Below, one piece after another: positions 2,084 through 8,679 of a DNA stretch of 64,000 nucleotides (its first letter is position 1; each line of letters begins with the position of its first letter). The position numbers were made by a program, and so were the translations under genes. Location of the stretch: positions 1 to 64,000 of the forward strand of contig JACQWY010000008.1 in NCBI GenBank assembly GCA_016209015.1, in the 5' to 3' direction. The notes beneath the pieces were generated by a model that saw nothing but the letters and a program-made list of their open reading frames with translations, made no database searches and was not told the DNA's origin. The stretch is from Gammaproteobacteria bacterium. Its GTDB lineage: Bacteria; Pseudomonadota; Gammaproteobacteria; Ga0077536.

Positions 2084-2104
2084 GAACTCGTTCAGAGCCT
2101 GCTT
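2084..2104. repeat. Short hairpin repeat, copy at the 3' end of the LysR gene
   Basis: GAACTCGTTCAGAGCCTGCTT matches 3211-3231 at 20 of 21 positions. The core GAAC-TC-GTTC is a palindrome. This copy overlaps the TAA stop of the LysR gene, so that gene is bracketed by direct repeats. It belongs to the hairpin family described at 3082-3231. Confidence 0.7.
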
Positions 2105-3020
2105 ACGCGTCCCACGGATCCGCCTCCGGATCGTCGCCGAAGGCTTTCAGCAGATAGTCGACGAACAGACGGACGCGCACCGGGACATGCTTGCGCGTCG
2201 GATAGATCGCATAGATGCCGAGAGACATGGAACGATACTCCGGCAGGATCTCGACGAGCGTTCCGGCTTTCAGATCCTCGCCCACGATGAAGCTCGGCTG
2301 CAGCACGAGCCCCGCGCCGGCGAGCGCGGCGTGACGGATCGTGTCGCCGTTGTCGGCGTGCATCACGCAGTGGATACCGACGCGGTGCTCGGCGCGATCC
2401 TGTCTGCCGTGGAACACCCATTCGTCGCGAGTGTTGAGGTGCGTATAGCCGAGGCAGGTGTGATCGCGCAGCTCCTCCGGCGCCCGCGGCTCGCCGCGGC
2501 GCGCGAGGTAGGCGGGCGCCGCGCAGCAGATCATGCGCGTGCGGGCGAGCTGCTTCGCGATGAGCGTCGAATCGGCGATGCGCGCGATGCGGATCCCGAG
2601 GTCGTAGCCCTGGTCGAGCAGATCGACGAGGCGGTCGTTCAGCGACACGGCGAGCTCGAGCTCGGGGTAGCGGGCGAGGAACTCCGCCCACAGCGGCCCG
2701 AGCTGATGGATTCCGAAGCTCACGGGGACGTTCAGCCGCAGCGTGCCGCGGGGCTTGACCGTGTTCTCGGTGGCGAGCGCCTCGGCTTCCTGCAGGTCTT
2801 CGAGGATCTGTTTGCAGCGCGTGTAGTAGATCTGTCCGCTCTCGGTCAATGCGAGGCGGCGCGAAGAGCGGTGCATGAGGCGCGTCGCGAGGCGGGACTC
2901 GAGATCCGCGAGGCCGCGGGAGGCCACGGCGGGCGAGAGACCGAGCTCGGCGGCGGCGCGCGAGAGGTTGCCGCATTCGACCGTCCGCACGAACATTTCG
3001 ATCGACCTGAGCCTGTCCAT
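2103..3020 (-). CDS. LysR-family transcriptional regulator
   Basis: 305 residues from the ATG at 3020 (MDRLRSIEMFVRTVECGNL). An earlier ATG at 3062 would add 14 residues, but the AGAGA before 3020 and the family's usual N-terminus favour the shorter form. The winged HTH occupies about residues 1-60 (AAELGLSPAVASRGLADLE). A periplasmic-binding-fold co-inducer domain follows to about 295. It lies downstream of, and in the same direction as nothing obvious; the iorAB pair ends at the other side of a 180-bp gap, so it may regulate that pair. The target is unknown. Direct repeats flank the gene. Confidence 0.9.
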   Translation of the reverse strand: MDRLRSIEMFVRTVECGNLSRAAAELGLSPAVASRGLADLESRLATRLMHRSSRRLALTESGQIYYTRCKQILEDLQEAEALATENTVKPRGTLRLNVPVSFGIHQLGPLWAEFLARYPELELAVSLNDRLVDLLDQGYDLGIRIARIADSTLIAKQLARTRMICCAAPAYLARRGEPRAPEELRDHTCLGYTHLNTRDEWVFHGRQDRAEHRVGIHCVMHADNGDTIRHAALAGAGLVLQPSFIVGEDLKAGTLVEILPEYRSMSLGIYAIYPTRKHVPVRVRLFVDYLLKAFGDDPEADPWDA

Positions 3021-3322
3021 GCCGTCTCTGCTTGCGGAATCTGCAAAGTTGGATTGCAGCACGCCCGGTTATTTTGCGGAAGCTCTGAATGAGTCCATCC
3101 TGGACTTTTCAGAGCCCGGTCGGCAAGAAGCGTGGTTCTTGCCGACCTTACGTGAACAATGGCTTACGCCACTGTTCACGGCGGCACGTCCCTGTGCCGC
3201 AGCAAGCCCTGAACTCGTTCAGAGCTTGCTTGAGTCAAACGATGGGGTAGAGTCGCCGCGTCGGTTCGAAAGACCCGGCCGCGCCTATCCGAAATCAAGA
3301 CAACAGAAGCGAGGAGCAGCTC
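3021..3322. other. Intergenic region, mostly hairpin repeat
   Basis: Gap between the divergent LysR gene and the CDGSH gene. It is dominated by the five-hairpin element (3082-3231). About 90 bp remain upstream of the CDGSH start, including GAGGAGC at 3311-3317 as its ribosome-binding site. I see no other gene and no convincing promoter. Confidence 0.6.
3082..3231. repeat. Mosaic of five adjacent hairpins (copy 1)
   Basis: Five inverted repeats follow one another directly. GCTCTGA 3082-3088 pairs with 3109-3115, with AGTCCA/TGGACT inside. GGTCGGCAAGAA 3118-3129 pairs perfectly with 3136-3147 around a 6-nt loop. CGTGAACA 3151-3158 pairs with 3173-3180, with TGGC/GCCA inside. GCGGCAC 3181-3187 pairs with 3194-3200. 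AGCAAGC 3201-3207 pairs with 3224-3230 around CTGAAC-TC-GTTCAG. The first 103 bp recur, somewhat degraded, at 8576-8679. The arrangement resembles REP/BIME mosaics. No transposase is nearby. Confidence 0.85.
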
Positions 3323-3562
3323 ATGAGCAGTCCGAAGTGTGCGCAGAAAGCCCCGTATCCCATCGAAGTCGAAGCCGGCAAGTCCTACTGGTGGTGCGCC
3401 TGCGGCGAGAGCAAGAAGCAGCCGTTCTGCGACGGCTCCCACAAGGGCACGGCGTTCGTCCCCACCGAGTACAAGGCCGAGAAGACCGGCCAGGTGTGGT
3501 TCTGCGGCTGCAAGGCCGCCGTCTCGGCACCGCTTTGCGACGGTACCCACAAGACGCTTTGA
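3323..3562 (+). CDS. CDGSH iron-sulfur domain protein (two motifs)
   Basis: 79 residues with two CDGSH zinc-finger-like motifs, each binding a labile [2Fe-2S] cluster through Cys3-His1. The first is CACGESKKQPFCDGSH at about residues 28-43. The second is CGCKAAVSAPLCDGTH at about 61-76. The second carries Thr for Ser. Small bacterial CDGSH proteins are thought to store or pass electrons or clusters in the cytoplasm; the exact role is unknown. It is a single gene with a GAGGAG ribosome-binding site and no clear partner. Confidence 0.93.
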   Translation: MSSPKCAQKAPYPIEVEAGKSYWWCACGESKKQPFCDGSHKGTAFVPTEYKAEKTGQVWFCGCKAAVSAPLCDGTHKTL

Positions 3563-8127: not shown

Positions 8128-8571
8128 ATGAAGAGAACTCGCCAGCTCGCGGCCACGGCCGCGCTCGCGCTCGGACTCACTGCCGCGCCCACGGCACCGG
8201 CGCTCGACGACTATCAGACCTATCTCCTGCATTGCTCAGGCTGTCACACGCCCGCGGGCATCGGCAGCGCGCGCAACGACATCCCGAGCCTGCATCGCGT
8301 GCCGGGCCTGCTCTCGCGCCTCCCGGAAGGACGTGCTTTCCTCGCACAGGTCCCGGGCATCGCGTATTCCGCGCTCTCGAACGCCGAGATCGCACGCGTG
8401 CTCAACTGGATGATCAAGACCTACAGTGCGGACACGATGCCTGCGAACTTCACGCCCTACACAGAAGCGGAAGTCGCGGAACTGCGCGGCAAGCACATCG
8501 TCGACATCATGGCGCTGCGCTCCGCGGTCGTGCAGCGCGCCGCCGCCCAGGGCATCGAGATCAAGTATTGA
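8128..8571 (+). CDS. Monohaem c-type cytochrome of the amine dehydrogenase cluster
   Basis: 147 residues with a signal peptide (1-25) and one haem c site, Cys36-Ser-Gly-Cys39-His40. No second CxxCH is present. It directly follows aauA, as a small periplasmic cytochrome gene (orf2) does in the Alcaligenes faecalis aau cluster. It is therefore a likely electron acceptor for the dehydrogenase or its TTQ-maturation partner. There is no azurin, amicyanin or MauG gene in the window. Start chosen at the ATG before the signal peptide. The stop is five bases before the second copy of the hairpin repeat. Confidence 0.85.
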   Translation: MKRTRQLAATAALALGLTAAPTAPALDDYQTYLLHCSGCHTPAGIGSARNDIPSLHRVPGLLSRLPEGRAFLAQVPGIAYSALSNAEIARVLNWMIKTYSADTMPANFTPYTEAEVAELRGKHIVDIMALRSAVVQRAAAQGIEIKY

Positions 8572-8575
8572 GGAC

Positions 8576-8679
8576 GCGCTGAATGAGTCCATCCGGGACT
8601 TTTCGGGGCACGGTCGGCAACCCGCGCGTGGTTCTTGCCGACTCACGTGAACCATGGCTTGTGCCATCGTTGACGGCGC
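8576..8679. repeat. Mosaic hairpin repeat (copy 2)
   Basis: About 103 bp align with 3082-3184 with only scattered differences. Stems AGTCC/GGACT, GTCGGCAA/TTGCCGAC and ATGGC/GCCAT are kept; the outer stems are partly lost. It starts just after the cytochrome stop codon and lies before DUF1329, where it could act as a terminator or processing site between the aau cluster and the next module. Confidence 0.8.

What the first reader, a model, noticed from the sequence alone, without database searches (positions are those of the whole stretch)
3082..3231. Five consecutive perfect hairpins form a mosaic intergenic element
Five separate inverted repeats with stems of 6 to 13 bp lie end to end, one of them a perfect 12-bp stem around six bases. 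The first 103 bp recur at 8576-8679. Such dense palindromes without a gene suggest a mosaic repeat of the REP/BIME kind, perhaps undescribed for this lineage.
Basis: seen in the sequence. Interest (0 to 1): 0.6.

Follow-up and report, generated by a model that had tools for sequence, protein, structure and literature searches.

The report
Five-hairpin jumping DNA of IS5 type
The hairpin cluster is one copy of a small parasitic DNA element (about 152 letters) that is present in roughly a hundred places in this genome, is very probably moved by an IS5-type transposase, and keeps the same five-hairpin fold in many distantly related bacteria even where its letters have changed.

Summary
The hairpins are real and far beyond chance (DNA fold z = -10.75). 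The unit is 3078-3229, a 152-bp mobile element found at 99 places in the genome. Intact copies end in GGAAGCTCTGAAYAAGT inverted repeats; of 34 full copies with readable flanks, 25 have identical 4-bp flanks, 24 of them YTAR, the IS5 target duplication. Other carriers hold IS5-family insertion sequences with matching ends; this assembly shows no such transposase. So it is an IS5-type MITE, not a REP/BIME. The closest described element is MITEPsy1. What stands out is the interior: the same five back-to-back hairpins recur in 60 of 369 genomes of the class and in 41 genomes of other classes, with stems rewritten by compensatory changes (45 of 57 pairs). Top- and bottom-strand wobble mismatches are equally common, which favours upkeep as DNA rather than one-strand RNA. 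Copies favour gene ends, since YTAR contains a stop codon on both strands. The hairpins' role is not shown. Copies lacking one end are common in two draft genomes and absent in one complete genome, so they may be assembly artefacts.

The parts
3078..3229 (+). complete copy of the 152-bp five-hairpin IS5-type MITE
   Evidence: covariance-model match 157.6 bits, E 2.2e-44; profile alignment of copies
3074..3077 (.). left flank TTGC, probable remnant of the 4-bp target duplication
   Evidence: right flank is TTGA; 3 of 4 letters match; the duplication of this copy is not intact
3230..3233 (.). right flank TTGA, probable remnant of the 4-bp target duplication
3078..3094 (+). left terminal inverted repeat GGAAGCTCTGAATGAGT
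   Evidence: shared by intact copies
3213..3229 (-). right terminal inverted repeat (on minus: GCAAGCTCTGAACGAGT; consensus GGAAGCTCTGAACAAGT)
3082..3115 (+). hairpin H1, contains most of the left terminal repeat paired to an internal inverted copy
   Evidence: fold; helix 1, 14 of 15 pairs with double changes across 91 sequences
3118..3147 (+). hairpin H2, 12-bp perfect stem, 6-base loop
   Evidence: fold; helix 2, 9 of 12 pairs with double changes
3151..3180 (+). hairpin H3
   Evidence: fold; helix 3, 10 of 11 pairs with double changes
3181..3200 (+). hairpin H4
   Evidence: fold; helix 4, 6 of 8 pairs with double changes
3202..3229 (+). hairpin H5, contains the whole right terminal repeat paired to an internal inverted copy
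   Evidence: fold; helix 5, 6 of 11 pairs with double changes
8573..8678 (+). second, decayed partial copy (consensus positions 2-106), starting 1 bp after the stop codon of the reading frame 8128-8571
   Evidence: nhmmer 68 bits, cmsearch E 1.8e-10, 88 of 109 columns identical, gene context by a homemade caller
2103..3062 (-). LysR-type regulator gene, divergent neighbour on the left (context, not part of the element)
   Evidence: PF03466 E 6e-43, PF00126
3323..3562 (+). CDGSH iron-sulfur protein gene, divergent neighbour on the right (context, not part of the element)
   Evidence: PF09360 E 8.5e-18

Best explanation
[quoted passage not shown] The transposase recognises the GGAAGCTCTGAAYAAGT-type ends and inserts the element at YTAR, duplicating those 4 bp (the duplication is shown by flanks; mobilisation in trans is inferred). 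Because YTAR contains TAA or TAG on both strands and is scarce in GC-rich coding DNA, insertions fall between genes and often exactly on stop codons, leaving the proteins intact (shown statistically with a homemade gene caller). The five back-to-back hairpins are a constant architecture, rewritten by paired changes across many lineages (shown). Most likely they are kept at the DNA level, because top-strand and bottom-strand wobbles are equally frequent (shown) and H1 and H5 each contain a terminal repeat paired to its own local copy (shown). Inference: in supercoiled or single-stranded DNA the interior folds up while the ends stay duplex, which would help a short, stiff element bring its ends together or keep its ends recognisable. 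In this genome the transposase appears to be missing now, so the family may be stranded. My confidence is about 0.95 for the IS5-type MITE and about 0.6 for upkeep at the DNA level.
For: Copies: 107 matches at E<=1e-3, 99 places after merging. Duplication: 25 of 34 full own copies with readable flanks have identical 4-bp flanks, 24 of them YTAR; in the complete genome G155, 12 of 14 153-bp copies and 17 of 18 205-bp copies read. IS5's known duplication is YTAR (PMC10359306, passages). Partner: IS5-family transposases inside elements with matching ends and duplications in carriers: L173 in G008 (TTAG/TTAG), L171 in G046 (ATAA/ATAA), L172 in G041 (TAAG/TAAG); full-length copies in G155 (5) and G291 (12 with identical scores). 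In G291 both the IS and the MITE carry the unusual ACGCTGA/GCGCTGA ends. Architecture: 60 of 369 genomes, 47 of 272 genera of the class; 41 genomes outside the class in a phylum sample of 398. Covariation: 94.3% of cells paired against 35-46% in slid controls, 45 of 57 pairs changed on both sides, 0 of 500 shuffles as high; the sequence-only alignment also gave 17 of 38 predicted pairs with double changes. Strand symmetry: G.T 96 cells in 45 types, A.C 120 cells in 43 types. Context: 59 of 62 classified copies intergenic; 22 of 59 between convergent genes against 16 of 112 element-free gaps; 19 of 59 abut a stop codon.
Against: No PF01609 transposase is found in the own genome, so the driver is not shown there; the carriers G039 (PF01609) and G050 (NF033581) lack it too. 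The hairpins' role is not shown; paired changes could come from template-switch mutation rather than selection. Among young own copies single stem changes (25) far outnumber double ones (2), so stems are not tightly policed in the short term. The window copy has an imperfect duplication (TTGC/TTGA). 9 of 34 full own copies have non-identical flanks.
Confidence: 0.85

Rival explanations
1. REP/BIME repeat: palindromic units spread by a RAYT (Y1 tyrosine transposase) through single-stranded hairpins, without terminal inverted repeats or target duplication.
For: High copy number, extragenic, palindromic; five Y1_Tnp genes exist in the genome.
Against: 4-bp YTAR duplications and 17-bp terminal inverted repeats; no GTAG tag at the ends; no copy in the five fetched Y1_Tnp loci; a unit of 152 bp rather than 20-40 bp.
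Confidence: 0.02
2. A structured RNA element or terminator array: the hairpins are selected in transcripts (mRNA 3' ends, RNase processing, termination), and mobility is secondary.
For: Copies are enriched at gene 3' ends, and the element points the same way as the gene in 17 of 20 stop-codon contacts. Rfam gyrA RNA matches the bottom strand of L002 and L004 at 41.6 and 43 bits, E 2.5e-7 and 8.9e-8.
Against: No strand asymmetry of wobble pairs, no terminator-like site, nothing above Rfam gathering score in the window; the gyrA matches stay below the cut-off of 45 bits and occur in 2 of 21 sources. Stop-codon placement is largely explained by the YTAR target; the orientation bias vanishes over all copies within 300 bp of a stop (25 to 18).
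Confidence: 0.15
3. Hairpins without function: palindromes are perfected and rewritten by template-switch (quasi-palindrome) mutation, and the architecture is merely inherited or spread with the ends.
For: Paired changes between near-identical copies: 3 distinct double changes against 7 single stem changes in 9 distinct G155 copies; many A-T/T-A and G-C/C-G flips and strand symmetry.
Against: Number, order, spacing and stem lengths of the five hairpins stay nearly constant over dozens of genera and more than one class, which mutation bias alone would hardly maintain; young own copies show mostly unpaired single changes.
Confidence: 0.3
4. On a side observation: copies lacking exactly one terminal repeat (16 right-lost and 9 left-lost beside 34 full own copies; 10 of 21 listed G008 rows) are products of an alternative, one-ended insertion route rather than of assembly errors.
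For: The intact end is flanked by YTAR in 16 of 16 and 8 of 9 cases, and the lost side never repeats it; boundaries cluster at consensus positions 134-140 and 13-20.
Against: In complete genome G155 none of 100 listed right ends is lost (1 has an internal H5 deletion; 23 further places were not listed); own and G008 are draft assemblies and several own contigs start inside a copy, so the missing ~21 bp could be an assembly artefact.
Confidence: 0.3

Closest known systems
MITEPsy1 (Pseudomonas syringae pv. phaseolicola; PMC3189936, passages read)
   Same: Terminal repeats of the same type (GGAAGGTCTGAAAAAGCC), 4-nt duplication of CTAG or YTAA, thought to derive from an IS5-family element (ISPsy2), transposition seen experimentally, relatives suspected to be widespread
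   Different: 100 nt rather than 152; the passages read describe no five-hairpin interior; six copies in the strain; interior sequences were not compared
IS5-family insertion sequences of type NF033581 (IS5_4), in loci L171-L173 and L278-L287
   Same: Ends and 4-bp duplications match the element's in the same genomes
   Different: about 1.2 kb and encode a transposase
Correia elements of Neisseria (PMC10969869, passages; target and hairpin shape recalled)
   Same: 100-200 bp MITE in high copy between genes, transcripts with secondary structure
   Different: TA target and other terminal repeats (recalled), no row of five hairpins (recalled)
QMITE2 (Coxiella) and Chunjie (Geobacter) MITEs (PMC10969869, passages)
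   Same: MITE families with copies that lack terminal repeats or direct repeats
   Different: Other sizes; no class-wide architecture in the passages read
REP/BIME with RAYT (PMC2817692, PMC3733652, passages)
   Same: Extragenic palindromes in high copy; palindromes preserved through complementary changes
   Different: GTAG-tagged short units moved by tyrosine transposases; no target duplication of this kind
Rfam gyrA RNA RF01740 (PMC2864571, one table passage)
   Same: Two-hairpin shape and a CCARGAUGG loop resembling H2+H1 on the bottom strand of two own copies
   Different: Below gathering score, 2 of 21 sources; described from Pseudomonas

Membership tests
IS5-type MITE | Terminal inverted repeats matching those of an IS5-family element | tested here: met
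   Ends compared in G008, G041, G046, G155, G291
IS5-type MITE | 4-bp target duplication, preferably YTAR | tested here: met
   25 of 34 full own copies identical, 24 of them YTAR; the window copy itself is imperfect (TTGC/TTGA)
IS5-type MITE | Short (under ~300 bp) and without a transposase gene | tested here: met
   152-bp consensus
IS5-type MITE | Partner transposase in the same genome (usual, not required) | tested here: not met
   PF01609: 0 matches in the own draft genome; present in G008, G041, G046, G155, G291
IS5-type MITE | Moved by the IS5 transposase in an experiment | not testable with these tools
   needs a transposition assay
REP/BIME | GTAG (or CGTC) tetranucleotide at one end of a 20-40 bp palindrome | tested here: not met
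   Ends are GGAAGC...GCTTCC
REP/BIME | RAYT gene flanked by the repeat | tested here: not met
   Five Y1_Tnp loci, no copy in the fetched flanks
Rfam gyrA RNA (RF01740) | Score at or above the gathering cut-off of 45 bits | tested here: not met
   Best 43 bits; hits in 2 of 21 sources
Intrinsic terminator | GC-rich hairpin followed by a T run | tested here: not met
   0 sites in 2900-3400, both strands
MITEPsy1 family | Homologous interior sequence | not tested
   Only ends and duplication compared, from the paper's text

The most novel reading that the evidence does not exclude
A phylum-spanning superfamily of IS5-driven mini-transposons whose five consecutive hairpins are a working DNA fold: when the element is single-stranded or cruciform, the interior collapses and each terminal repeat pairs with its own local copy, presenting duplex ends to a DDE transposase. 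The fold, not the sequence, would then be the conserved part of the transposon, a DNA counterpart of a structured RNA.
Probability: 0.25. Interest if true: 0.8.

Novelty: new variant of a known kind. Interest (0 to 1): 0.6.

Why it matters
MITEs are usually seen as short-lived, lineage-bound deletion relics of an insertion sequence. Here a non-autonomous element keeps its length (about 150 bp) and an ordered set of five hairpins across dozens of genera, with stems rewritten by paired changes, and its ends seem to follow those of the partner IS from genome to genome. That makes a testable case for selection on DNA secondary structure in transposition. It also explains a hairpin-rich repeat in about one in six sampled genomes of the class for which the ten paper searches and Rfam gave no description, and its stop-codon-containing target shows how such an element can spread with little harm.

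Tried and rejected
REP/BIME with RAYT: rejected (no GTAG, no copies at the five Y1_Tnp loci, duplications present). Terminator array: no sites. Known RNA family: the window gives nothing at gathering score and nothing up to E=1 in 2950-3350; gyrA RNA matched two other own copies below the cut-off. Plasmids and phages: two distant blastn searches of PLSDB and one of the phage collection with copies from other genera gave no match; a viral-contig scan for the H4-H5 motif gave 0, and one for the terminal repeat gave 1 contig, which carries a different small element with the same ends. The G155 young-copy count was spoiled by two misaligned rows and was redone. A first overlap filter removed nothing (107 kept); the second (99) is the one used. 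Alignments A3 and A4 were fitted to the structure and lean towards it; A1, aligned by sequence alone, is the independent check. Ten paper searches gave no description of this five-hairpin element; only open-licence PMC papers are held, and of the listed papers I read passages of eight.

Full report
What is there. Five hairpins stand back to back at 3082-3229. The stretch folds far better than shuffles as DNA (z -10.75) and as RNA (z -10.41). Aligning 30 copies from the own genome showed that the unit is longer than reported: it runs from 3078 to 3229 and begins and ends with inverted GGAAGCTCTGAAYAAGT repeats. It lies between a LysR-type gene on the minus strand and a CDGSH protein gene on the plus strand. 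The copy at 8573-8678 is a decayed partial copy, 88 of 109 columns identical.

Copy number. blastn found 43 matches at E<=1e-3. The terminal-repeat pattern occurs 110 times (67 forward, 43 reverse) and its reversed control 0 times. A covariance model finds 107 matches at E<=1e-3 (150 of 1297 candidates scored); some are shadows of the palindromes, and 99 places remain after merging overlaps.

It is a transposon. Among held own copies with a profile score above 40 bits, 34 are full length with readable flanks; 25 of these have identical 4-bp flanks, TTAG 12, TTAA 7, CTAG 3, CTAA 2, TAAA 1. The other 9, the window copy among them, do not. YTAR is the duplication typical of IS5 (PMC10359306, passages). 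Copies in the complete genome G155 show the same (12 of 14 153-bp copies). A 205-bp subfamily there has an extra 52 bp between H1 and H2; 18 copies were read and 17 have matching 4-bp flanks.

Its likely driver. IS5-family transposases (NF033581, E about 1e-100) sit inside insertion sequences whose ends and duplications match the element in G008, G041 and G046. G155 has five full-length copies of the transposase gene and G291 twelve with identical scores, besides others. In G291 the insertion sequence and the small element share the deviant ACGCTGA/GCGCTGA ends. The own genome gives 0 matches to PF01609, so no driver is seen there; the assembly is a 65-contig draft.

Where copies sit. With a homemade gene caller, 59 of 62 classified own copies are intergenic and 3 overlap a called gene; one further copy had an incomplete context and 15 near a locus edge were left out. 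Arrangement: 26 tandem, 22 convergent, 11 divergent, against 68, 16 and 28 for element-free gaps. Nineteen of 59 abut a stop codon (from -12 to +1 bp); in 17 of 20 such contacts the element points the same way as the gene (binomial p 0.0026), while over all copies within 300 bp of a stop the bias is absent (25 to 18). Outside elements, YTAR occurs 151 times between genes, 21 times on stop codons and 31 times in coding sequence, so the scarcity of the target in coding DNA explains most of the placement; the excess at stop codons (19 seen, about 7 expected from 21 of 172) is moderate.

The conserved architecture. Copies in G008 (same family, other genus) and G039 (other family) are about 70-74% identical to the window copy over most of its length, yet have the same five hairpins at the same spacing with different stems. 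A model built from 18 sequences found the element at E<=1e-10 in 60 of 369 genomes of the class, 47 of 272 genera (at most 8 candidates per genome were scored there, and a few of these genomes had contributed to the model). In a phylum-wide sample 44 of 398 genomes match, 41 of them outside the class, and five copies read there keep all or most of the five hairpins and the ends. The class name rests on record titles of contigs that carry the H4-H5 motif and read Gammaproteobacteria, Pseudomonadales and Alteromonadales; several have the contig lengths of G008.

Covariation. On the 92-row alignment 94.3% of 5158 cells pair, against 35-46% when the partner is slid by 1-3 columns; 45 of 57 pairs changed on both sides; no shuffle reached the observed values. 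A 46-row alignment gave 92.8% and 36 of 57. These alignments were fitted to the structure; the sequence-only alignment gave 38 predicted pairs, 17 with double changes.

DNA or RNA. If one RNA strand were selected, G.U should be tolerated and A.C not. They are about equally frequent: 96 cells in 45 pair-types against 120 in 43, and 8 against 7 among single changes in young own copies. I read this as upkeep at the DNA level, by function or by template-switch mutation; the data do not separate these two. In G155, 9 distinct young copies show 3 distinct double changes, 7 single stem changes and 3 unpaired ones; in the own genome 2 doubles stand against 25 singles.

Copies without one end. In the own genome 16 copies lack the right and 9 the left terminal repeat, with YTAR at the intact end (16 of 16, 8 of 9) and no duplication on the other side; in G008, 10 of 21 listed rows end at consensus position 134-135. 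In complete genome G155 none of 100 listed right ends is missing (23 more were not listed). Truncated MITEs are known (QMITE2, Chunjie; PMC10969869, passages). Since both affected genomes are drafts, an assembly artefact is not excluded.

Comparison with what is known. The nearest described element is MITEPsy1: 100 nt, ends GGAAGGTCTGAAAAAGCC, insertion after CTAG or YTAA with 4-nt duplication, observed to transpose, likely from ISPsy2 of the IS5 family (PMC3189936, passages). The present family works like it and shares the type of ends, but is longer and has the five-hairpin interior; interior homology was not tested. REP/BIME membership fails on the tested features (PMC2817692, PMC3733652, passages).

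Verdict. An IS5-type MITE family, undescribed as far as the ten paper searches and Rfam show, with an unusually deep conservation of DNA secondary structure. The element's nature is well supported; the purpose of the hairpins is inference.

Noticed in passing
flanks of L019, L048, L058, L066, L085 (own genome): Several copies are inserted beside a second palindromic repeat (..GTCCGATTA / GCGTAATCGGAC..), apparently another intergenic repeat family of this genome.
   Followed up: no
L102, L141, L154, L155, L166 (G008): Copies inserted in or next to a REP-like repeat GTGGGAGCCGCTTTAGCGGCGA, resembling Pseudomonas REPs.
   Followed up: no
L170, about 1002-1145 (IMG/VR contig IMGVR_UViG_3300029915_000918): A viral contig carries a different small element with the same terminal repeat and TTAA on both sides, but another palindromic interior.
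   Followed up: no
L131, L139, L160, L163 (G008): A roughly 50-bp derivative, apparently made by internal deletion, recurs at several places with 4-bp duplications, so about 50 bp may suffice for mobility.
   Followed up: no
G050:C1:13925-14556 and 2569119-2569522; own C54:5-261, C59:6520-6795: Tandem arrays with a 124-bp period, that is the element without H5, joined through the shared GGAAGCTCTGAA.
   Followed up: partly
G155, loci L258-L274: A 205-bp subfamily with a 52-bp insert between H1 and H2 has spread in a complete genome beside the 153-bp form.
   Followed up: partly
L002:1579-1663 and L004:1579-1668, plus strand: Rfam gyrA RNA (RF01740) matches the bottom strand of H2+H1 just below its cut-off; the Pseudomonas gyrA leader might descend from such an element.
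   Followed up: partly
own contigs C12, C19, C23, C29, C50, C54, C60: Several contigs start inside or next to a copy, so the element seems to break the assembly.
   Followed up: no
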